A stretch of 64,000 bases of DNA from positions 124,001 through 188,000 of the forward strand of contig JAPSFT010000007.1 in NCBI GenBank assembly GCA_035063765.1, given 5' to 3'. The notes beneath the pieces were generated by a model. That model was not told where the DNA came from. It saw only the letters and a list, made by a program, of their open reading frames with translations, and did no database searches. Position numbers and translations under genes: made by a program. Positions within the stretch are counted from its first letter, which is position 1, and each line of letters starts with the position of its first letter. Shown here one piece after another: positions 4,921 to 37,845 of the stretch. The stretch comes from Deltaproteobacteria bacterium (lineage in GTDB: Bacteria; Myxococcota_A; UBA9160; PR03).

Positions 4921-6027
4921 GTGTCGCACACGCATCCGCATCCGCATCCGCCTTCCCCCGAGCCCCGCAAGCCCAAGCAGGAGCAGGAGCCGGCGGCGCG
5001 CGAGATCCGCGAGGTGGCGCCGAACCTGCTCCGCATGCAGCTCCCGATCGCGATGCCGGGGCTCGGGCACGTGAACATGTACGCGCTCGTCGACGAGCGC
5101 GGCGCGGCCGTCGTCGATCCCGGCCTCCCGACACCGGGGAGCTGGAAGGCGGTCCGTGACCGCCTCGCCCAGGCCGGCCTGCGCCCGAAGCACGTCCACA
5201 CCGTGATCGTCACGCACTCGCACCCCGACCACTTCGGGGGCGCCGCCCGCCTCGCCCGCGAGGCGGGCGCGCAGGTGGTGGCGCACCGCTCGTTCCGCTT
5301 CGGCGTGGTCGAGGCGACGCAGGATCCCGAGGTCTCGGTCGACGATCTCAGCGCCTCGGGTGCCAACGACGAGGCGCAGCGCCGGATCCTCGCCGGCTGG
5401 AACCATCGGACGCCGTGGGGCGGCCAGCATCCGCGCCCCCCCTTCAAGATGCGGCTGCGCTGGCGGGTCGCGCGCTGGCTCGGCGGCTCCTTCGTGCCGG
5501 CCGTGACCAGGCCGGTCGCCGCCGGCGAGGTGCTGCGCCTGGGCGGGCGCGAGTGGGTGGTGCGCCACACCCCCGGCCACACCGAGGACCACATCTGCCT
5601 GCACGATCCCGCCGACGGGCTCTTCCTCTCGGGCGACCACGTGCTGCCCACGATCACGCCGCACATCTCGGGCCTCGCCCTCTCGAAGGACCCGCTCGAG
5701 GGGTTCTTCGCCTCGCTCGACCAGGCCGCGGCGGTGCCGGGCGTGCGGCTGGTCCTGCCCGCGCACGGCCATCCCTTCACCGACCTCGCCGCCCGCTGCG
5801 CCGCGATCAAGCAGCACCACTACGACCGCCTCGACACGGTGAAGCGGATCGGGCGCGAGCTCGGCCCCGCCACCGTGCAGGCCTTCTCCCGCAAGCTCTT
5901 CCGGCCGCGGAGCTGGGGCGAGATGGCCGAGAGCGAGACCTACGCCCACCTCGAGCACCTGCGCCTGGCCGGCGCCGCGCAGGCGCGCCGCGGCGCGGAC
6001 GGCTTCCTCGTCTACGAGACGGGCTGA
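4921..6027 (+). CDS. metallo-beta-lactamase-fold hydrolase (LACTB2/glyoxalase-II type)
   Basis: 368 aa, GTG start. The MBL metal motifs are complete and in order: VTHSHPDHFGG (H-x-H-x-D-H), RHTPGHTEDH, LFLSGDHVLP and PAHGHPF. The C-terminal ~80 residues (ending AQARRGADGFLVYETG) fit the winged-helix tail of LACTB2-like and CoA-thioester-hydrolase-like MBL proteins. A His/Pro-rich N-terminus (MSHTHPHPHPPSP) could hold or sequester metal. The protein is predicted cytoplasmic and would hydrolyse a thioester or other ester using one or two zinc ions; the true substrate is unknown. It lies 90 bp upstream of the SCP2 gene, same strand, which fits lipid or acyl-CoA metabolism. Confidence 0.9.
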   Translation: MSHTHPHPHPPSPEPRKPKQEQEPAAREIREVAPNLLRMQLPIAMPGLGHVNMYALVDERGAAVVDPGLPTPGSWKAVRDRLAQAGLRPKHVHTVIVTHSHPDHFGGAARLAREAGAQVVAHRSFRFGVVEATQDPEVSVDDLSASGANDEAQRRILAGWNHRTPWGGQHPRPPFKMRLRWRVARWLGGSFVPAVTRPVAAGEVLRLGGREWVVRHTPGHTEDHICLHDPADGLFLSGDHVLPTITPHISGLALSKDPLEGFFASLDQAAAVPGVRLVLPAHGHPFTDLAARCAAIKQHHYDRLDTVKRIGRELGPATVQAFSRKLFRPRSWGEMAESETYAHLEHLRLAGAAQARRGADGFLVYETG

Positions 6028-6117
6028 GCCGGCGCCATCGGCGAAAGCGGGGGAACGAGCTATATCCGCCGGGCGGCCCCGCTCCCCGGGGCCGATCCAC
6101 CAGGAGTCGCTCGTCCC

Positions 6118-6507
6118 ATGGGCCAGGTCTTCCTCTCCCCCGGCTGGTTCGCCGAAGTCGACCGGATCATCACCGAGATCGACCCGCCGGTGCCCGCCGC
6201 CGTCCAGGATCTCGTCATCAACTTCCGCGTGAAGGGCGGCCCCGAAGGCGACGTCGAGGCGCGCATGGCGGGCGGGCGCCTGCTCGCGGGCTTCGGCGAG
6301 GGTGCGCCGACCACCGTCAACGTCCCGTTCGAGATCCTGCGCAAGATGCTGGTCGAGAACGACCAGAACGCCGCGATGCAGGCCTTCATGGCCGGACAGA
6401 TCCAGGTCGAGGGCGACATGACGCGGCTCATGGCGATGCAGGCCGCCGGGCCGCCGAGTGCCGAGAGCCAGCAGGTCGCCGAGCGCATCCGCGCGATGAC
6501 CGCGTAG
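6118..6507 (+). CDS. SCP2 sterol-carrier-domain protein
   Basis: 129 aa, a single SCP2-type lipid-carrier domain. The pattern is the family signature: a strand pair with INFRVKGGPEGDVEARMAGG, then TVNVPFEILRKMLVEND, QAFMAGQIQVEGDMTRLMAM and a C-terminal helix. SCP2 domains bind fatty acyl-CoA, sterols or other hydrophobic ligands in the cytoplasm and present them to enzymes. AGGAG upstream of the ATG at 6118 supports this start. It follows the MBL hydrolase on the same strand, so a shared role in acyl-CoA handling is plausible. Confidence 0.85.
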   Translation: MGQVFLSPGWFAEVDRIITEIDPPVPAAVQDLVINFRVKGGPEGDVEARMAGGRLLAGFGEGAPTTVNVPFEILRKMLVENDQNAAMQAFMAGQIQVEGDMTRLMAMQAAGPPSAESQQVAERIRAMTA

Positions 6508-6613
6508 CCGGCGGCGCGCCCCGCGCGGCGCTGCGCCGCTCACCGGGGCGGCGCGCGTGCGTTGATCGATCACGAGAGCCGTCTACCCTCGCGGGACGCC
6601 CCGTTCCGCGTGC

Positions 6614-6626
6614 GGAGGACGCCCTG
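6614..6626 (+). promoter_or_regulatory. ribosome-binding site favouring a CTG start
   Basis: GGAGG at 6614-6618 lies five bases before an in-frame CTG (6624-6626). This is the best-placed initiation signal for the debranching enzyme. No ATG is available nearby in frame; the next in-frame candidate is GTG at 6684, which lacks a comparable Shine-Dalgarno sequence. Confidence 0.5.
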
Positions 6627-8804
6627 AAGCCCCTCGGCCCCGTCGCGAGCGACGCCGATCCGGGCGGCGTACCGCCGTCCGACGTGATCGAGGTCGACGA
6701 CCGCTTCTACATCCTCGCCACCTCGGATCGGCTCGACGAGCGAACGCGGGTGCTGAAGACCGGCGACACCTTCGCGGTGCTCGACCGGCGCGGCGACGCG
6801 CGCCAGCTCGGGCGCGGCGAGCAGGGGCTGTTCCACCGCGGCACCCGCTACCTGTCGCACCTCGAGCTCGGCCTCGGCGGCGAGCGGCCGCTGCTCCTGG
6901 GCTCCTCCGTGCGCAGCGACTCCAAGGTCGTCACCGTCGACCTCACCAACCCCGATCTGCGTCAGGGCGAGCACCTGGTCCTGCCGCGGGGCTGGCTGCA
7001 CGTCTCGCGGACGCTGACGCTGCTCGCCGGCGGCCTCGACGAGGTCATCGAGGTCACGAACTTCGGGATGGCCCACGCCGAGACGACCCTCCGCCTGCGG
7101 GTCGACGCCGACTTCGCCGACATCTTCGAGGTGCGGGGCTTCCGGCGCGAGCGACGCGGAGAGCGGCTGCCGGCGCCCGCTGCGAGCGACGCGATCGAGC
7201 TCGGCTACCGGGGTCTGGACGGGGTCGAGCGCTGGACGCGCGTCACCTGCGAGCCCCCGGCGCGGATCGCCGGCCGCGAGCTCGTGATCGACGTCCGCCT
7301 CGGGCCCCGCGAGACCCGACACCATCGCGTGCAGGTCCGGACGCGCGAGACACCGGGGCACCCGGCGGGCGCCGCGCGCGCGCACCCCCTCCGCGCGGAC
7401 CCCGCCGCCCGCCTCGAGACCTCGAGCCTGCGCTGGAACGACTGGCTCCACCGCTCGTCGGCCGACCTTGCGATCCTCGCCACCGAGACCGAGCTCGGGC
7501 CCTACCCGTACGCCGGCATTCCCTGGTTCAGCACGCCCTTCGGGCGCGACGGCCTCGTCACCGCGCTCGAGCGGCTGTGGCTCGACCCGTCGCTGGCGCG
7601 CGGTGTGCTCTCCTACCTGGCGGCGACGCAGGCGACCACGTCGGATCCCGAGCGCGACGCCGAGCCGGGCAAGATCCTCCACGAGGCGCGCCACGGCGAG
7701 CTGGCGGCCCTCGGCGAGGTGCCCTTCGGCTGCTACTACGGGAGCGTCGACGCCACGCCGCTCTTCGTCGCGCTGGCCGGCGCCTACTTCGAGCGCACCG
7801 CCGACCGCGAGCTCGTGGCCGGGCTCTGGCCGCAGGTCGAGGCGGCGCTCGCGCGCATCGACGCGGACTGCGACGAGCGTGGCTTCCTCGTCTACCAGCG
7901 GCGCTCGCGCCGGGGCCTGGTCCAGCAGGGCTGGAAGGACTCGAGCGACTCGATCAGCCACGCCGACGGCACGCTCGCGGAGGGGCCGATCGCGCTCTGC
8001 GAGGTGCAGGGCTACGTGCATCTCGCCCGGCGCGAGGCCGCGCGCATCGCCCGGGCGCTCGGCAACGAGGAGCGCGCGCTCGCGCTCGAGGCGCAGGCCG
8101 CGGCGCTCGCGCGGCGCTTCGAGCGCGCCTTCTGGTGCGACGAGATCGGCAGCTACGCGCTGGCGCTCGACGGCAAGGGGGAGCCGTGCCGGGTGCGCGC
8201 CTCGAACGCCGGCCACTGCCTCTACACCGGGATCGCTTCGCCGGCGCGCGCGCGCCGGGTCGCCGAGGGCCTGTTCCAGGGCGACCTCTTCTCGGGCTGG
8301 GGTGTGCGCACGCTCGCCGCGGGCGAGCGCCGCTACAACCCGATGTCGTATCACAACGGCTCGGTCTGGCCGCACGACAACGCGCTGATCGCGCAGGGGC
8401 TCGCGCGCTACGGCTTCGAGCGCGACGCGCTCGTCCTGCTCGAGGCCGCCTTCGACGCCAGCCGCTGCGTGGACCTGCACCGGATGCCGGAGCTCGTGTG
8501 CGGCTTCGCGCGGCGCCTCGACGACGGGCCGGTAGCCTACCCGCTTGCGTGTACGCCTCAGGCCTGGGCAGCCGGCGCCGTGTTCCTGATGCTCCAGGCC
8601 GTGCTCGGGCTCACGATCTCCGCGCCGCGGCGCGAGCTCCGCCTGGTCCGGCCGCTGCTGCCGCGCAGCCTCGCCGAGCTGCGCATCCGCGACCTGCGCG
8701 TCGGCGACGCGCAGGTCGACCTCGACCTCGCGCGGCGCGGCGAGCACGTGATGGTCAGTGCGGTGTCGCGCCGAGGTCGGGTCCGGGTGCTGGTCGAGAG
8801 CTAG
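6624..8804 (+). CDS. amylo-alpha-1,6-glucosidase (glycogen debranching-type)
   Basis: 726 aa from a CTG start at 6624 chosen because of the GGAGG at optimal distance; if GTG at 6684 is used instead the protein is 20 residues shorter. The N-terminal ~280 residues form the GDE_N_bis beta-domain (DTFAVLDRRGDARQL, GLFHRGTRYLSHLEL, LVLPRGWLHVSRTL). The rest is an (alpha/alpha)6 barrel with IPWFSTPFGRDGLV, CYYGSVDATPLF, WKDSSDSISHADG and SYHNGSVWPHDNALI. The family hydrolyses alpha-1,6 branches in glycogen-like glucans. It converges on the GT4 gene with a 50 bp 3' overlap. A glycogen branching enzyme (GlgB) is encoded at 41.2 kb, so glycogen synthesis and breakdown are both represented. Confidence 0.9.
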   Translation: MKPLGPVASDADPGGVPPSDVIEVDDRFYILATSDRLDERTRVLKTGDTFAVLDRRGDARQLGRGEQGLFHRGTRYLSHLELGLGGERPLLLGSSVRSDSKVVTVDLTNPDLRQGEHLVLPRGWLHVSRTLTLLAGGLDEVIEVTNFGMAHAETTLRLRVDADFADIFEVRGFRRERRGERLPAPAASDAIELGYRGLDGVERWTRVTCEPPARIAGRELVIDVRLGPRETRHHRVQVRTRETPGHPAGAARAHPLRADPAARLETSSLRWNDWLHRSSADLAILATETELGPYPYAGIPWFSTPFGRDGLVTALERLWLDPSLARGVLSYLAATQATTSDPERDAEPGKILHEARHGELAALGEVPFGCYYGSVDATPLFVALAGAYFERTADRELVAGLWPQVEAALARIDADCDERGFLVYQRRSRRGLVQQGWKDSSDSISHADGTLAEGPIALCEVQGYVHLARREAARIARALGNEERALALEAQAAALARRFERAFWCDEIGSYALALDGKGEPCRVRASNAGHCLYTGIASPARARRVAEGLFQGDLFSGWGVRTLAAGERRYNPMSYHNGSVWPHDNALIAQGLARYGFERDALVLLEAAFDASRCVDLHRMPELVCGFARRLDDGPVAYPLACTPQAWAAGAVFLMLQAVLGLTISAPRRELRLVRPLLPRSLAELRIRDLRVGDAQVDLDLARRGEHVMVSAVSRRGRVRVLVES

Positions 8805-30760: not shown

Positions 30761-33343
30761 CTACGTCCCGATCCGGAGGAGGCGGACGAGCGGCCCCGCA
30801 GGCGAGCGCTCGGCGCGCAGGTCGACCTCGCCCGCCAGGTGCCAGAGGTCCTCGCCGCCCGGGTCGCAGAGCACCTGCTGCAGGCTCCAGCGCCGCGGCT
30901 CCTCCTGGCGCAGGACGGTCTTGTCGGCGCTGCGGGCGCGCGGCTCGAAGACGATGCGCCCGTGCTCGGCGAAGAAGGGCGCGAGCGCGCGCTCGAAGCG
31001 CGCCTCGTCCCAGGGATCCCCGGGGTCGGCACGCACGCACGCCGCGGCCGCCTCCCAGTCGCGCGCCGCGAGCGCGCGCACGAGCTGGTGGAGCTCGCCG
31101 CGCACGCGCGCGGCGAGCGCGCGCGGGTGGCGCGCGAGGTCGTAGGGCTGGGGCGCCGGAGCCGGCCGATCGCGGCGCCGTCCCGAAGGGTCCAGAGCAC
31201 TCGCACCGCCCGGCCGCAGGCGCTCCTCCCACTCCTCGACGAGGCTCGAGTCCACCCGCGCCAGCAGCGCGCGGAAGAAGCCGATCGCGTCCCACAGCTC
31301 GTCGTCGCGCGCGGCCTCCGGCACCGACTGGACGAGCACGTTGTGGAACTGCGAGAGGTAGCGGAGCAGGAGGCCCTCGCTGCGCTGGATGCCGTAGCGG
31401 CGCACGTAGTGGTCGAAGTCCTCGTAGCCCTCCCACATCTCGCGGGCCACGGACTTCGGGCGCAGCGGCTCCTCGGCGAGCCATGGGTGCTTCTCGCAGA
31501 AGAAGGCGAAGCTCGCGCGCAGGAACTCCTCGGCGGGCTTCGGGTGGGTCACCTCGGCGAGCTTCGCCATGCGCTCCTCGTACTCGACCCCCTCCGCCTT
31601 GAGCCGCGCCACGAGCTCCGCCCGGGCCTGCTGCACCTGCTGCTGGAGGACCGGCCGGGGGTCCTCGAGGATCGCCTCCACGAGCGACAGGACGTCGCGG
31701 GCGTAGTCGGGCGACGTGCGGTCGAGGAGCCCGACCGCGTCGACCAGGTAGAGCGCCAGCGACTGGTGCAGCGAGAAGTCGCGCTGGAGATCGGCGGCCA
31801 GGCGCACGGTGGCGCAGCCAGCCTCGACGTCGAAGACGCGCTGGACGAGGCCCGCCGCACGCAGCGAGCGGAACAGACGGGCCGCCTCGCGGCGCAGCAC
31901 ACGCTTGCGGGCCGGCGGCTCGTGCGAGCGCTCGATCAGCTCGACGAGCAGGCGGTGGCCGGTCCCCCGCACCCCTTCGTCGAGCCCGCGCTGGAGCGAC
32001 GCCACGAGCATTCCGTGCCCGATCCGGAAGCGCGACTCGAGCCTCTCCGGGGGGCTCGCCGCGAGCTTCTCGAAGGCCTCCTTCGACCAGCCGACGAAGC
32101 CGGGCGGCGGCTTCTTCTTCTGCGCCTTCTTCCCGCCGCCCGCCGCCCGGGCCTCGATGCGCTTGTTCTCGACCACGTGCTCGGGCGCCTGGCACACCAC
32201 CCAGCCGTGGTCGTCGAAGCCCTTGCGTCCGGCGCGCCCGGCGATCTGCTGGAAGTCGCGGACCGAGAGCAGGCCCGTCTTCTCGCCGTCGAACTTCACG
32301 AGCCCCGAGAAGAGCACGGTGCGGATCGGCACGTTCACGCCGACGCCGAGCGTGTCGGTGCCGCACACGACCCGCAGCAGGCCGCGCTGGGCGAGCTGCT
32401 CGACCAGCAGCCGGTAGCGCGGCAGGAGCCCCGCGTGGTGGAGGCCGACCCCGTGCTTCAGGATGCGCTGCACGTCCTTGCCGTAGGGCGAGTCGAAGCG
32501 CACGCCGGCCAGCGCCTCGGCGATCGCCTGGCGCTGCTCGCGCGTCGCCAGCTGCGCGCTGGTCAGCGCCTGGGCCTGCTCGGCCGCCTCGCGCTGGGTG
32601 AAGAAGACGACGTAGACGGGCGCACGCCCGCTCGCGAGCAGCTCCTCGACCGTCTCGTGGAGCGGCGTCTCGCGCCACTCGAAGCCGAGCGGCACGGGCC
32701 GCTCGTCGCTGTGCACGTGGGCGGCCGGACGCCCGCTCTGGCGCACCAGCTTCTCCTCGATCGGCGCGGTGTTGCCGAGCGTCGCCGACATCAGCAGGAA
32801 CTGGGTGCGCTCGAGGAGCAGGAGCGGCACCTGCCACGCCACGCCCCGCGCCGGGTCGGCGTAGAAGTGGAACTCGTCCATCACGACGCAGGGCGCGTCG
32901 GCGGCCTCGCCCTGGCGCAGCGCCATGTTCGCGAGCACCTCGGCGGTGCAGCAGACGACGGGCGCCGCCCAGTTGATGCTGGCGTCGCCGGTGAGCATCC
33001 CCACCTGCTCGGGGCCGAGCTCCGCGCACAGCGCGAAGAACTTCTCGTTGACGAGCGCCTTCACCGGTGCGGTGTAGAACGAGCGGCGGCCCTCGCAGAG
33101 CGCCTTCCAGTGCAGGCCGAGCGCCACCAGCGACTTGCCCGAGCCGGTCGGTGTCGAGAGCACCACGTGCTTGCCGGCCCAGAGCTCGAGGAGCGCCTCC
33201 TCCTGCGCGGGATAGAGCGTGAGGCCCGTGTCGGCGACCCACCCGAGGAAGCGATCGAGCGACGCCTCGGGCGCGAGCGGGCCGTCGGGCAGGCGCGGGC
33301 CGAGGCGCGAGGCCGCGGGCGCTTCGGTGTCGGGGGCGCTCAT
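30761..33343 (-). CDS. Ski2-like DEAD/DEAH RNA helicase with DUF3516
   Basis: 860 aa, ATG at 33343. The helicase core is complete: LSTPTGSGKSLVALGL (Walker A), MDEFHFY (DExH variant), LMSATLG (motif III), CGTDTLGVGVN and QIAGRAGRKGF (motif VI). A lysine-rich linker (GGKKAQKKKPPPG) and a ~400-residue C-terminal helical region follow, matching DUF3516 proteins. This group belongs to the superfamily 2 Ski2/Mtr4-like helicases, and bacterial members are thought to act on RNA. It is divergent from the SNF2 gene with only 58 bp between the starts, so a shared promoter region is likely. Predicted cytoplasmic. Confidence 0.9.
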   Translation of the reverse strand: MSAPDTEAPAASRLGPRLPDGPLAPEASLDRFLGWVADTGLTLYPAQEEALLELWAGKHVVLSTPTGSGKSLVALGLHWKALCEGRRSFYTAPVKALVNEKFFALCAELGPEQVGMLTGDASINWAAPVVCCTAEVLANMALRQGEAADAPCVVMDEFHFYADPARGVAWQVPLLLLERTQFLLMSATLGNTAPIEEKLVRQSGRPAAHVHSDERPVPLGFEWRETPLHETVEELLASGRAPVYVVFFTQREAAEQAQALTSAQLATREQRQAIAEALAGVRFDSPYGKDVQRILKHGVGLHHAGLLPRYRLLVEQLAQRGLLRVVCGTDTLGVGVNVPIRTVLFSGLVKFDGEKTGLLSVRDFQQIAGRAGRKGFDDHGWVVCQAPEHVVENKRIEARAAGGGKKAQKKKPPPGFVGWSKEAFEKLAASPPERLESRFRIGHGMLVASLQRGLDEGVRGTGHRLLVELIERSHEPPARKRVLRREAARLFRSLRAAGLVQRVFDVEAGCATVRLAADLQRDFSLHQSLALYLVDAVGLLDRTSPDYARDVLSLVEAILEDPRPVLQQQVQQARAELVARLKAEGVEYEERMAKLAEVTHPKPAEEFLRASFAFFCEKHPWLAEEPLRPKSVAREMWEGYEDFDHYVRRYGIQRSEGLLLRYLSQFHNVLVQSVPEAARDDELWDAIGFFRALLARVDSSLVEEWEERLRPGGASALDPSGRRRDRPAPAPQPYDLARHPRALAARVRGELHQLVRALAARDWEAAAACVRADPGDPWDEARFERALAPFFAEHGRIVFEPRARSADKTVLRQEEPRRWSLQQVLCDPGGEDLWHLAGEVDLRAERSPAGPLVRLLRIGT

Positions 33344-33401
33344 CGCGGCGCGAGGGTAGTGGATGCCCGGGCGGGACGGGTTTCCTACGCTGCGCGCCCG
33401 C

Positions 33402-36335
33402 ATGGCTTCCTCGTCGCTCTTCGAGGCGGTGCGCAAGGCGGCCTCGCGCCACGCCTGGTCGCGGGGCGTCGAGCTCGTGCGCGCGCAGGCCGTCACGCTC
33501 GAGGCGGAGGGCGCGGACGAGCTGCGCCTGCGGGTCGCCGAGCCGGGCGCGGTGGTCGCGCGTGCGGTGACGCTGCTCCCGGCCGACGGCGCCTGGGACT
33601 GCGACTGCGCCGGCGAGGAGGACCCCTGCGAGCACGTCGCCGCCGCGGCGATCGCGTGGCGACAGGCGGGCGGCGCCCTGCCCCGCCCGGCGCCCGGCGA
33701 AGGTGGCGGGCGGCTGCGCTACGCGCTCTCGCGCGGTGCGGGCGGGCTCGCGCTCGCGCGGCTCGCCGTCGCAGCCGACGGCGGCGAGCAGGTGCTCGCG
33801 GTGCGCCTGCGCGCGCTCGCGGCCGGGCGCGTCGCGGGCCCCCGCGTGGCCGCCGAGGAGATCGATCTCGCGGTCGACGATGCGCTCGACGACCCGCGCG
33901 GGGGCCCTCTCGGCCGCGCCGGCCTCACGCGCCTCCTGCCGCTCCTCGCGCGCTGCACCGACGTGCGTCTCGACGGGGTCCCGGTGCGCTGCGAGCCCGA
34001 GCCGCTCGCACCCCAGGGCTTCGTCGAGGACCACGCGGGCGGCTTCCTGCTGCGCGTCGAGCTGCTGCCGCCCGGCGCCCAGCCGGTCGGCGAGGGCTTC
34101 GCGCTCGTCGCGGGCGCGCTCCGGCCACTCCGCGAGACGCGCCTCGGCGCCCGCGAGCTCGCAGAGCTCCCGCGCGGGGAACTCTTCGCGCCCGAGCGTG
34201 CGGCCGAGCTCGCGGCCGAGGTGCTCCCGGACCTCGCGCGGCGCATCCCGGTGGAGGTGCGGACGCGGCGGCTTCCGCGCGCCGGCGCGCGCCGCGAGCC
34301 GCCGCGGATCGTGATCGCGACGCACCGCCAGGGCGAGGCGCTCGCCGTGCGTGCCGACCTCGTCTACGGCGACCCGCCGCGCGCGCGCGTCGAGGCAGGC
34401 CGGCTGATCCCGCTCGGAGGCGCCGTGCCGCTCCGCGACGAGCCTGCCGAGCGGGCGCTCGCGCGGCGCGTGCAGGGCGAGCTGGCGCTCCCGGTCGGCG
34501 CCGAGCTCGTGCTGCGCGACGAGGCCGCGCTCGAGACCGCCGCGCGCCTGCGGAGCTGGCCGGGCGCGATCGAGGGCGATGCGCACGCCACCTTCGTCCG
34601 CGCGCCCGCGCTCGCGCCGAGGCTCGGCGGCGAAGGGGAGCGCGTCGAGCTCTGGTTCGAGGGCGCCACGCCGGGCGCGCCCCTCCGGGTGGACGCTGCG
34701 CGCGTGCTGCGCGCCTGGGAGGAGGGACGCACGTTCGTGTCGATCGGCGAGGGAGGCCTTGCGCCCCTCCCCGCCGACTGGCTCGCGCGCTTCGGCCGCG
34801 AGGCGGCGGCCCTGCTCGAGCAGCGCCGCGCCGACGGCAGCCTGCCGCGCGCCGCGCTTCCGGATCTCGCCCGCCTCGCCGCCGCGCTCGACACCCCGCC
34901 GCCCCCCGCCCTCGACGGGCTGCGCGCCCTCGTCGACGGCTTCACGGCGACGCCGCCCGCCGCGCTGCCGCCGGACCTGCGCGCGGAGCTGCGCGGCTAC
35001 CAGCGCGCGGGCGCCGACTGGCTCTGCTTCCTGCGCGACGCCGGCCTCGGCGCGCTGCTCGCCGACGACATGGGCCTCGGCAAGACGCTCCAGGTGCTCT
35101 GCGCCCTGCCTGCCTCCAGGCGGACCCTCGTCGTGTGCCCGACGAGCGTGCTCCAGAACTGGGCCGACGAGCTGCGCCGCTTCCGGCCGGGCCTCGCCGT
35201 CGCCATCTACCACGGCCCCGCGCGGAGCCTCGATCCCGGCGCCGACGTGACCCTCACGACCTACGCGATCCTGCGTCTCGAGGCGGAGGCGCTCGCCGCC
35301 GCCGCCTGGGACACGGTCGTCCTCGACGAGGCCCAGGCGATCAAGAGCCCGGACAGCCAGGTCGCCCGGGCCGCCCGCGCGCTGCGCGCCGGCTGGCGCG
35401 TGGCCGTGACCGGCACGCCGGTCGAGAACCGCCTCGAGGAGCTGTGGAGCCAGCTCCACTTCGCGAGCCCGGGGCTGCTCGGCTCGCGCGCCTCGTTCCA
35501 GACGCGCTGGGCGCGGCCGATCGCGGCCGGCGAGCCGGGCGTCGCCGAGGCGCTGCGCCGGCGCCTGCGCCCCTTCGTGCTGCGCCGCCGCAAGAGCGAG
35601 GTCGCCCCCGAGCTGCCGCCGCGCATCGAGCGCGTGCTGCGCTGCGAGCTCGACCCCGAGGAGCGCGCGGTCTACGAGGCGATCCGTGCCGCCACGCGCC
35701 GCGAGGTCGCCGAGCGCCTCACGGCGGGTGCGAGCCCGCTCGCCGCGCTCGAGGCGCTCCTGCGCCTGCGCCAGGCCGCCTGCCACCGCGGGCTCGTGCC
35801 GGGGCAGCAGGCGGGTGCGGGTCCGGCGGGCTCGTCGAAGCTCGAGCTGCTCGTCGAGGAGCTCGGCACGGCGGTCGCCGAGGGCCACAAGGCGCTGGTC
35901 TTCTCGCAGTGGACGAGCCTGCTCGACCGGGTCGAGCCGGCCCTCGCGGCGGCGGGGATCGCCTGGACCCGGCTCGACGGCAGCACCCGCGACCGCGCCG
36001 GGGTGGTGGCCCGCTTCCAGGACGCGGCGGGGCCGCCGGTCCTGCTCGTCTCGCTCAAGGCCGGGGGCAGCGGCCTGAACCTGACCGCGGCCGACCACGT
36101 CTTCCTGCTCGACCCGTGGTGGAACCCGGCGGTCGAGGACCAGGCCGCGGACCGCGCGCACCGGATCGGCCAGACCCGGCCGGTCGAGATCCACCGGCTC
36201 GTCGCGGCCGACAGCGTCGAGGAGCGCGTGCTGGCGCTCCAGGCGCGCAAGCGTGCCGCCGCCGACGCGGCGCTCGGCGACGCGGGTGCCGCCGCGGCGC
36301 TCACCCGCGAGGACCTGCTGGCCCTGCTCGACTAG
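33402..36335 (+). CDS. SNF2-family ATPase with SWIM zinc finger
   Basis: 977 aa from ATG at 33402 (an in-frame ATG at 33363 gives 13 extra residues). The N-terminal SWIM zinc finger is exact: C67-x-C69-x6-C76-x-H78 ([14 protein letters not shown]). The SNF2 ATPase starts near residue 530: [15 protein letters not shown] (Walker A, about residues 555-562), [24 protein letters not shown] (DEAQ), [14 protein letters not shown]. The helicase C half has [35 protein letters not shown] and [14 protein letters not shown]. Such ATPases translocate on double-stranded DNA and can displace bound proteins. The stop is 33 bp ahead of a histone-fold gene on the same strand, an unusual and suggestive pairing. 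Confidence 0.93.
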
Positions 36336-36368
36336 CTCGTTAGAGTCTCGCCCTCGGAGGGACCCGGC

Positions 36369-36920
36369 ATGGAGGCGGCCGATCGCTGGCGGCGCTGCAG
36401 CTCGTGCAAGGCGCCGCTCGCCTTTGCCGCGCCGTACTGGGCCTGCAACGTCTCCACCTGCAACCGCGGGCGCACGGCGCTCACCTTCTGCTCGGTGTCG
36501 TGCTGGGACGCGCACCTGGCCGTGGTGCCGCACCGCGAGTCGTGGGCGCTCGAGCGCCGCGCGCCGACGCGCGCGGAGTGGGCCGCGAAGCTCGCGGAGG
36601 ACGGGGGGGAGGAGCGGCCGGCCGAACGGGCCCCCGCGACCGCAGCCCCGGCGCGCGCTCCGTCCGCGCCCCCTGCCGCCGCCGCCGCGCCGCGCCGCAT
36701 CCTCCCGCCGCCGGCGCCGGCCCGGCCGGACCCCCTCGCGCGCGAGGTCCTCATCGTCGCCTCGAAGCTCAAGGCCTACGTGCGCGCGCGCGCCGGGATG
36801 AACACCTCGGACCGCTGCGTCGAGCCGCTCTCGGACGCGGTGCGCGAGCTGGCCGAGCGCGCCATCGAGAAGGCGCGCGCCGAGGGGCGCAGGACCGTCC
36901 TCGAGCGCGACTTCGAGTGA
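36369..36920 (+). CDS. zinc-finger / histone-fold fusion protein
   Basis: 183 aa, ATG with GGAGGG (36356-36361) well placed. Residues 10-55 hold a two-zinc, MYND/HIT-like finger: C10-x2-C13, C26, C31, C41-x3-C45-x3-H49 and H55 (FCSVSCWDAH core). Residues 60-122 are a Pro/Ala-rich linker. Residues 123-183 look like a bacterial histone fold: helix 1 VLIVASKLKAYVRARAG, loop MNTSD, long helix 2 VEPLSDAVRELAERAIEKAR, loop with the Arg-Thr pair GRRTVLERD, and a very short helix 3. This is the arrangement of Bd0055-like histones. It is predicted to bind DNA or other proteins. It follows the SNF2 ATPase gene by 33 bp, so the two are likely co-transcribed. Confidence 0.8.
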   Translation: MEAADRWRRCSSCKAPLAFAAPYWACNVSTCNRGRTALTFCSVSCWDAHLAVVPHRESWALERRAPTRAEWAAKLAEDGGEERPAERAPATAAPARAPSAPPAAAAAPRRILPPPAPARPDPLAREVLIVASKLKAYVRARAGMNTSDRCVEPLSDAVRELAERAIEKARAEGRRTVLERDFE

Positions 36921-36936
36921 GGCGGGAGGCCGCCGG

Positions 36937-37845
36937 CTAGGCGGCCTCGCTCAGCTCGGGCGCGCGGCTCGCGCCGGTCTCCTTCATCCAGGCAGGCGGC
37001 TCGCGCAGGTTGCTCACGAGGCCGATCGCCGCGAGCCCGCGCAGCACGTAGTAGGTCGCGTCCACCTCCCAGGGGCGGAAGCCCTGGCGGCAGCTCGCCT
37101 GGTAGAAGTGATGGTTGTTGTGCCAGCCCTCGCCGCAGGTGAGCAGAGCCAGCGCCAGGCTGTTGCGGCTCGTGTCGCCGGTCTCGAAGCGCCGCCCGCC
37201 GACCAGGTGCATCAGCGAGTTGATCGTGTAGGTCGCGTGCCAGAGCAGGGTCGTCGACAGGAAGTAGCCCCAGAAGAGGCCCGGCCAGCCGCCGATCGCG
37301 AAGCAGGCGACGGCGAGCGCCACCGGCGGCACGAAGTGCCAGCGGTTGAGCCAGCGGATCTCGGGGTAGCGCGCGAAGTCCGGGATCAGGTCGAGGCGCG
37401 TCGCCTGCCAGCGCTTGTCGAAGATCCAGCCCTGGTGCGAGTACCAGAAGCCGCGCTTGGGCGAGTGGACGTCGTGCGGGCCGTCCGACTCGCGGTGGTG
37501 GATGCGGTGCAGGCTCGCCCACCAGAGCGGGCCCTTCTGCGTCGCCAGGGTCCCGAGCAGCGCCAGCACGAACTGGAAGGCGCGGCTCGTCCGGAAGCTC
37601 TTGTGCGCGAAGTAGCGGTGGTAGCCCGCGGTGATGCCGAACAGACGGCCCCAGAAGGTGAGGGCGAAGAGCAGGAGGGCGGTCTTGGTGAAGCCGGTCA
37701 CGAAGACACCGAGCGCCGCGACGTGCACGCCCCAGTAGAGCGCGTAGGTGATGCGGTCGAGCGTGGCGTTCGCCCAGAGCCCGTCGGCATGGGTCGGCGG
37801 CCGCACGGGCTCGGCGTTCGTCGTCTCCCCTTCGCGCATGGTCAC
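36937..37845 (-). CDS. acyl-lipid/acyl-CoA desaturase
   Basis: 302 aa, GTG at 37845 with an in-frame ATG two codons later. The three His boxes of membrane di-iron desaturases are present: HRYFAH, HRIHH and HNNHH (in GEGWHNNHHFYQ). Four hydrophobic regions (ITYALYWGVHVAALGVF, LLLFALTFWGRLFG, FQFVLALLGTLATQ, VALAVACFAIGGWPGLFWGY) fit the usual topology. The layout is that of stearoyl-CoA/delta-9-type desaturases, which insert a double bond into saturated acyl chains to control membrane fluidity. Length is standard for bacterial forms. It is alone, between the histone-like gene (convergent) and the universal stress gene. Confidence 0.92.
   Translation of the reverse strand: MTMREGETTNAEPVRPPTHADGLWANATLDRITYALYWGVHVAALGVFVTGFTKTALLLFALTFWGRLFGITAGYHRYFAHKSFRTSRAFQFVLALLGTLATQKGPLWWASLHRIHHRESDGPHDVHSPKRGFWYSHQGWIFDKRWQATRLDLIPDFARYPEIRWLNRWHFVPPVALAVACFAIGGWPGLFWGYFLSTTLLWHATYTINSLMHLVGGRRFETGDTSRNSLALALLTCGEGWHNNHHFYQASCRQGFRPWEVDATYYVLRGLAAIGLVSNLREPPAWMKETGASRAPELSEAA

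What the first reader, a model, noticed from the sequence alone, without database searches (positions are those of the whole stretch)
33402..36920. SNF2 ATPase and histone-fold protein in one putative operon
Seen: a SWIM/SNF2 ATPase gene ends at 36335 and, 33 bp later on the same strand with a good ribosome-binding site, a protein with a C-terminal histone fold begins. Known: SNF2 enzymes move or strip proteins on double-stranded DNA, in eukaryotes typically on nucleosomes; bacterial histones (Bd0055 type) can be real chromatin proteins. Inference: the pair may be a minimal bacterial chromatin module in which the ATPase remodels or removes the histone-fold protein. I am not aware of such a pairing being described.
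Basis: partly seen in the sequence, partly recalled or inferred. Interest (0 to 1): 0.75.

Follow-up and report, generated by a model that had tools for sequence, protein, structure and literature searches.

The report
Zinc-finger histone beside SNF2 ATPase
In an unnamed bacterium, a gene for a DNA-moving SNF2 enzyme is followed at once by a gene for an already described zinc-finger bacterial histone, a pairing also seen in a distant bacterial lineage but not in most relatives, so the two proteins may work together but a true 'bacterial chromatin-remodelling module' is not shown.

Summary
A SWIM/SNF2 ATPase gene (33402-36335, +) is followed after 33 bp and a GGAGGG ribosome-binding site by a 183-aa protein with an HBb (Bd0055)-like histone fold (residues 125-182). 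It is the only histone detected in the genome; two HU/IHF-family genes are also present.

Gene order is mostly not conserved: of 38 sampled same-phylum genomes with both genes outside the window's family, none shows them adjacent (35 on separate contigs). Inside the family (six genomes) the pair is tandem in two (33-bp gap; 4-bp overlap), split by about 1 kb in three (transposase elements in two), and apart in one. Unexpectedly, the same tandem (33-55 bp) occurs in three Bdellovibrionota genomes whose SNF2 and ZZ proteins branch apart from the window family's: formed twice, or an ancient remnant.

A working partnership is plausible but unproven. Bulk chromatin remodelling is unlikely: 59 of 77 ZZ-histone genomes in the Bdellovibrionota sample lack this ATPase, and published data describe the ZZ histone as scarce in Bdellovibrio.

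The parts
33402..36335 (+). SWIM/SNF2-family DNA translocase (ATPase) gene, 977 aa
   Evidence: matches at E 1e-30 in 51 of 60 genomes, own included
33591..33656 (+). SWIM-type zinc finger (residues 64-85)
   Evidence: PF04434 E 0.004, below the curated cut-off
34998..36170 (+). SNF2 and Helicase_C lobes (residues 533-923)
   Evidence: PF00176 and PF00271
36356..36361 (+). Shine-Dalgarno-like GGAGGG, 7 nt before the ATG
   Evidence: sequence
36369..36920 (+). ZZ histone gene, 183 aa
36387..36569 (+). N-terminal two-zinc ZZ-like finger (residues 7-67)
   Evidence: 8 of 8 ligands invariant in 26 of 26 sequences; AF2 pLDDT 88.9 for residues 1-80; weak matches to ZZ domains among others
36570..36737 (+). 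variable basic Ala/Pro/Arg-rich linker (residues 68-123)
   Evidence: mean column identity 0.32 against 0.77 (finger) and 0.73 (histone fold); pI 11.3 for residues 79-123
36741..36914 (+). HBb-like histone fold (residues 125-182)
30761..33343 (-). divergently transcribed DUF3516 DEAD-box helicase next to the SNF2 gene (context)
   Evidence: PF12029 3.1e-142
36937..37845 (-). convergent fatty-acid desaturase after the ZZ histone gene (context; exact start uncertain)
   Evidence: PF00487 1.3e-16

Best explanation
A two-gene operon for a single-chain SNF2 DNA translocase and a ZZ histone. Shown: the domains, the ZZ-histone architecture, the tandem order in two unrelated lineages, and the lack of linkage in most other genomes surveyed. 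Inferred: the ZZ histone dimerises through its histone fold and clamps or bends DNA in the minor groove without sequence specificity, as HBb does. Its two ZZ fingers, held on flexible basic linkers, grip a conserved protein partner. In these lineages the SNF2 enzyme acts on the same DNA-bound complex: it is recruited by, or strips, the ZZ histone at particular sites such as repair, replication or transcription intermediates. The ZZ histone is thus a low-copy architectural adaptor, not bulk packaging, and the pair is an optional partnership fixed as an operon in a few lineages.
For: Same-strand tandem, SNF2 first: window gap 33 bp, L032 4-bp overlap, L101 55 bp, L141 (G099) 33 bp, L142 (G100) 33 bp. 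The two groups fall in separate clades in both the SNF2 and the ZZ tree, so a pair passed between them is not supported. Of the 80 named loci, four have this SNF2 upstream: three of the window's family and L101; a crude chance expectation of a tandem for 59-90 genomes with both genes is 0.006-0.018. Both genes co-occur more than expected: same-phylum sample of 188, 41/10/43/94 (both / ZZ only / SNF2 only / neither; p 2e-9); the 149 of these outside the window's class, 13/8/39/89 (p 0.007); Bdellovibrionota sample of 191, 18/59/5/109 (p 1.5e-4) (counted; tests; not corrected for relatedness). Of HBb's ten main DNA-contact residues (PMC11317129), seven are identical here (N145, R180, S132, T176, S147, K133, K135), two are Lys-to-Arg (R139, R175) and one differs (A131); the RD clamp R174/D181 is invariant in 26 of 26. 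The finger is at least as conserved as the histone fold: 22 of 61 invariant columns against 10 of 58, which suggests a conserved partner.
Against: Most genomes with both genes do not show them together: 0 of 38 outside the family in the phylum sample (35 on separate contigs, which can hide some) and 15 of 18 not tandem in Bdellovibrionota. In the window's own family three genomes carry about 1 kb between the genes: Y1-transposase elements with inverted repeats in L031 and L034, another ORF in G002; in the sixth member, G003, no SNF2 lies in the roughly 1.5 kb upstream of its ZZ gene, though that contig may be contamination. In Bdellovibrionota 59 of 77 ZZ-bearing genomes lack this SNF2; in the other sample 43 of 84 SNF2-bearing genomes lack a ZZ match. 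Other genes of the local block (the DUF3516 helicase, a nucleoside-phosphorylase-like gene) are also syntenic in the family, so tandem order there is weak evidence on its own. The Bdellovibrionota tandem rests on one clade. No physical interaction was tested.
Confidence: 0.45

Rival explanations
1. Fortuitous neighbours. The ZZ histone gene landed downstream of a housekeeping SNF2 gene twice and uses its transcript; the proteins do unrelated jobs.
For: Neighbourhoods of both genes vary widely: apart from clusters of the ZZ ORF itself and antisense shadow ORFs, the commonest neighbouring ORF family reaches 10 of 81 loci (crotonase-like, name from sequence). SNF2 sits beside a DUF3516 helicase in the window's family and in three class-mates, and has a DnaJ-like gene downstream in five genomes of another family. 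Insertions between the genes are tolerated. Each gene often occurs without the other.
Against: An independent second tandem with the same order and short gap is unlikely by chance (crude expectation about 0.01); one pair overlaps by 4 bp; the genes co-occur above expectation (uncorrected for relatedness).
Confidence: 0.4
2. One reading: a minimal bacterial chromatin module in which the SNF2 ATPase slides or evicts the histone from DNA genome-wide.
For: A motor with all the motifs checked next to the genome's only detected histone. A chain of the RSC remodeller is the first (weak) VIA match of the finger (6tda_L, Z 4.3; that this chain region is the Rsc8 ZZ domain is recalled).
Against: Two HU/IHF-family genes are present; the ZZ histone is low in expression and abundance in Bdellovibrio (PMC11390915); 59 of 77 ZZ-bearing genomes in the Bdellovibrionota sample have no such ATPase; the fold match is at a Z that the tool itself calls common.
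Confidence: 0.12

Closest known systems
ZZ histones (Schwab et al. 2024, PMC11390915; Haliangium ochraceum D0LYE7)
   Same: N-terminal two-zinc finger plus C-terminal bacterial-dimer-like histone fold; the same positions for seven ligands (C10, C13, C26, C31, C41, H49, H55)
   Different: The eighth ligand, a cysteine, is at 45 here and in 26 of 26 aligned sequences, whereas the paper's text gives profile position 43; the paper describes alpha3 histones as single-gene operons, while here the gene follows SNF2
HBb / Bd0055 bacterial dimer histone
   Same: Histone fold (E 1e-9), RD clamp, most DNA-contact residues
   Different: HBb is a stand-alone abundant fold without a finger or linker
Bacterial SWI2/SNF2 helicases (NCBIfam SCO1167/SCO6262 family, RapA)
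   Same: SNF2 and Helicase_C lobes, motor motifs; SCO1167 model 442 bits over residues 496-973
   Different: Far below the SCO1167 (1200) and RapA (576) cut-offs, so neither equivalog; the SCO1167 match does not reach the N-terminal half
Eukaryotic SWI/SNF-type remodellers
   Same: Motor family; ZZ domains occur in eukaryotic chromatin proteins
   Different: No multi-subunit complex, nucleosome or remodelling shown here

Membership tests
ZZ histone | C-terminal alpha3 / bacterial-dimer-like histone fold | tested here: met
   phmmer HBb 1e-9, profile 3.6e-14, Foldseek 9ezz
ZZ histone | N-terminal finger with C4 and C2H2 zinc sites | tested here: met
   Eight ligand positions invariant in 26 of 26; spacing as published except C45 for C43
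ZZ histone | Finger has the ZZ fold | tested here: inconclusive
   p62, HERC2, PRT1, BIG and p300 ZZ regions are among the matches, but all matches are weak (Foldseek E 0.79 or worse, Z 4.3 or less), and NosL, LIM, MYND and ribosomal proteins rank beside them
ZZ histone | Zinc is bound | not testable with these tools
   needs purified protein
HBb-type bacterial dimer histone | Single stand-alone histone fold | tested here: not met
   extra finger and linker
HBb-type bacterial dimer histone | RKT...D motif and basic alpha1 positions | tested here: met
   R174-R175-T176...D181 (RRT here; K is commonest at 175 in the family), K133, K135, R139
SNF2 ATPases | SNF2_N and Helicase_C lobes with motor motifs | tested here: met
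RapA/HepA | reaches the RapA model cut-off | tested here: not met
   36.9 bits against 576
SCO1167/SCO6262 helicase | reaches the equivalog cut-off | tested here: not met
   441.7 bits against 1200
Chromatin remodeller | ATP-dependent movement or eviction of histones | not testable with these tools
   biochemical assay needed

The most novel reading that the evidence does not exclude
A dedicated bacterial remodeller-histone pair: the SNF2 translocase specifically recognises the ZZ finger and removes, slides or loads the DNA-bound ZZ-histone dimer, an ATP-driven histone-handling system in bacteria that was made into an operon independently in two phyla.
Probability: 0.15. Interest if true: 0.85.

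Novelty: new variant of a known kind. Interest (0 to 1): 0.45.

Why it matters
The ZZ-histone passages that I read give no known function or partner. A tandem with a SNF2 motor in two unrelated lineages is a concrete lead on a partner, and it can be tested with two recombinant proteins. If the motor acts on the histone, ATP-dependent histone handling would exist in bacteria. None of the eight paper searches (open-access PMC library only) showed me a report of this pairing; most hits were seen as listings only, and passages were read in five papers: PMC12701072, PMC10627809, PMC11390915, PMC11317129, PMC13088155.

Tried and rejected
HIT-type finger idea: FCSxxCWxxH looked like zf-HIT or MYND (recalled). 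Pfam gave zf-HIT at E 1.3 in 1 of 26 members; no HIT-finger protein is named in the rows shown for the finger model, while MYND proteins (SMYD2, BS69/ZMYND11) appear weakly. Not excluded, but the published ZZ label fits better.

Horizontal transfer of the pair between the two lineages: not supported by the SNF2 and ZZ trees. In the ZZ tree the non-tandem G117 falls inside the Bdellovibrionota tandem group (94/82) and G018 inside the window's family (81/68), so single-gene branching is not fully settled.

Same-contig but non-adjacent cases (G014 19.5 kb, G117 16 kb, G216 31 kb, G236 19 kb) were read as possible remnants of ancestral linkage, but they are few and of mixed orientation.

Limits of the counts. 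Neighbour clustering works on stop-to-stop ORFs in very GC-rich DNA, so antisense shadow ORFs fill the largest clusters. Five of 28 requested ZZ rows had no clear ORF and were left out of the ZZ tree (L120, L129, L131, L134, L135); the SNF2 tree has partial rows. Alignment A1 leaves out L010, L018, L019 and L024 of the 30 loci. Of 222 confirmed places the tool kept 80; 73 of these have over 1.5 kb upstream of the ZZ match, and one, L085, is probably G003 of the window's family. SNF2 presence was judged at E 1e-150 in the two wide surveys, so fragments or diverged copies count as absent; ZZ thresholds there (1e-25, 1e-28) can miss split matches. Adjacency in the surveys was read off the printed coordinates by eye. 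The Bdellovibrionota survey was prompted by L101, so its 3 of 18 is not an unbiased rate, and G099 and G100 are near-identical. One search was given 40 of the 80 named loci and searched 39. That G003's ZZ looks like another family's was judged by eye.

Complex modelling was not possible (single-chain predictor, two jobs, both used).

Full report
WHAT IS THERE. On the + strand, 33402-36335 encodes a 977-aa SNF2 protein: SNF2 domain E 1.1e-58, Helicase_C 2.1e-19, a SWIM finger below its cut-off, and the motor motifs checked. After 33 bp, with GGAGGG 7 nt before the start, 36369-36920 encodes 183 aa. No terminator-like or sigma-70-like site was found in 33200-37000 (such scans are weak in 75% GC DNA). 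The gene upstream is a divergent DUF3516 helicase, the gene downstream a convergent desaturase.

THE HISTONE PROTEIN. Residues 125-182 match the solved bacterial histone HBb/Bd0055 (E 1e-9 by sequence, 3.6e-14 by profile). The AlphaFold2 model (pLDDT 81, pTM 0.46) has HBb structures as its first five Foldseek matches. Curated models are less sure: no Pfam hit for this protein, PF00808 in 7 of 26 homologues at best 0.0041, NCBIfam's archaeal-histone model 21.3 bits against a cut-off of 50. Of the ten HBb residues named as important DNA contacts (PMC11317129, passages), seven are identical, two are Lys-to-Arg and one differs. The N-terminal 67 residues hold a finger with C10, C13, C26, C31, C41, C45, H49, H55, invariant in 26 of 26 aligned sequences. 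Modelled alone (residues 1-80) it reaches pLDDT 88.9; its structure matches include several ZZ domains, but all matches are weak and the first Foldseek row is the copper chaperone NosL. The architecture is that of the published ZZ histones (PMC11390915, passages), whose ligand list agrees but for one position (43 there, 45 here).

CONTEXT IN THE GENOME. P0002 finds no second histone there at E 0.001, though the same query finds histone-only matches in relatives. Two HU/IHF-family genes are present. Two SNF2-domain matches exist, this one (7e-60) and a weaker one on another contig (4.6e-18). Named records of the window's family are titled Myxococcota, Deltaproteobacteria or uncultured proteobacterium.

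IS THE PAIR CONSERVED? Of 60 genomes, own included, 44 match P0002 (histone-only matches counted) and 51 match the SNF2 at 1e-30. In the window's family (G000-G005): G000 gap 33 bp; G005 (L032) 4-bp overlap; G001 (L031) and G004 (L034) have 967 and 1076 bp between, holding Y1/IS200-like transposases on the other strand between inverted repeats of 42 and 51 nt; G002 has about 944 bp with another ORF; G003 has no SNF2 match in the roughly 1.5 kb upstream of its ZZ gene, but that contig may be contamination (its ZZ sequence looks by eye like another family's, and the genome is listed at 6% contamination). In a phylum sample of 188 genomes, 51 have a ZZ match, 84 the SNF2, 41 both; of the 38 with both outside the family none shows adjacency: 3 have them on one contig 19-31 kb apart, 35 on different contigs. 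Among the 80 named loci (73 with over 1.5 kb upstream, 54 with over 4.5 kb), SNF2 lies upstream in four: three of the family and L101, an Oligoflexia genome.

A SECOND LINEAGE. L101 (G060) has SNF2 4982-7945 then ZZ histone 8001-8489, same strand. Two relatives, G099 and G100, near-identical to each other, have the same with a 33-bp gap. In 191 genomes of that phylum 77 have a ZZ match, 23 the SNF2, 18 both, and these three alone are tandem. SNF2 and ZZ trees put the two groups in separate clades, so a transferred cassette is not supported. A crude chance count for one such tandem is about 0.01. It is the best evidence for a functional link, but it rests on one clade, and an ancient linkage retained in two places cannot be excluded.

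CO-OCCURRENCE. Both genes occur together above expectation in both phyla (p 2e-9; 0.007 outside the window's class; 1.5e-4), with no correction for shared ancestry. Each also occurs alone: 10 of 51 and 59 of 77 ZZ genomes lack the SNF2; 43 of 84 and 5 of 23 SNF2 genomes lack a ZZ match. Neither needs the other in general.

MECHANISM. Most likely the ZZ histone is a low-copy DNA-bending adaptor: a histone-fold dimer on the minor groove (by homology to HBb), two fingers on basic linkers that hold a conserved protein. The finger has more invariant columns than the histone fold (22 of 61 against 10 of 58). In the lineages with the operon the SNF2 motor probably works on the same DNA complex. Steps shown: architecture, tandem, separate ancestry of the two groups. 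Steps inferred: co-transcription, dimer, bending, partner binding, SNF2 action. Against bulk chromatin: HU/IHF genes present, and the ZZ histone described as low in expression and abundance in Bdellovibrio (PMC11390915).

NOVELTY. The histone family is known; SNF2 helicases are known; the tandem was not seen in the papers searched. The ZZ-histone paper has no occurrence of 'SNF2' or 'helicase' in its main text and describes alpha3 histones as following the single-gene-operon pattern. I rate it a new variant of a known kind.

Noticed in passing
L031:7040-7990 and L034:6923-7988: Y1/IS200-like (probably REP-associated; recalled) transposase elements with 42- and 51-nt inverted repeats lie between the SNF2 and ZZ-histone genes in two relatives; the repeats differ in sequence, so these may be independent insertions.
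   Followed up: partly
L019:1288-2097 (-): A ZZ protein with what looks like two tandem histone folds in one 270-aa chain, which could be a built-in dimer; the ZZ-histone passages read describe one fold.
   Followed up: no
L074, L095, L106, L062, L058: An SMC-like gene lies 2.7-5.4 kb downstream of the ZZ histone in 5 of the 110 loci searched (name from sequence); PMC12701072 reports SMC next to the Leptospira histone. A GAF-like protein (name from sequence) lies upstream in 7 loci.
   Followed up: partly
window 30761-33402: DUF3516 DEAD-box helicase divergent from SNF2 with 58 bp between; relatives of it lie within about 1 kb of SNF2 in three class-mates too (L172, L173, L174), so this link reaches further than SNF2-ZZ.
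   Followed up: partly
L163, L164, L166, L168, L169: In another family of the order a DnaJ-like gene (name from sequence) lies 0.1-1.7 kb downstream of SNF2 on the same strand.
   Followed up: no
window 36489-36503 (C41 and C45 of the ZZ histone): All 26 aligned sequences have C-x3-C where the ZZ-histone paper's text gives residues two apart (C51, C53); perhaps a slip in the paper or a different residue there.
   Followed up: no
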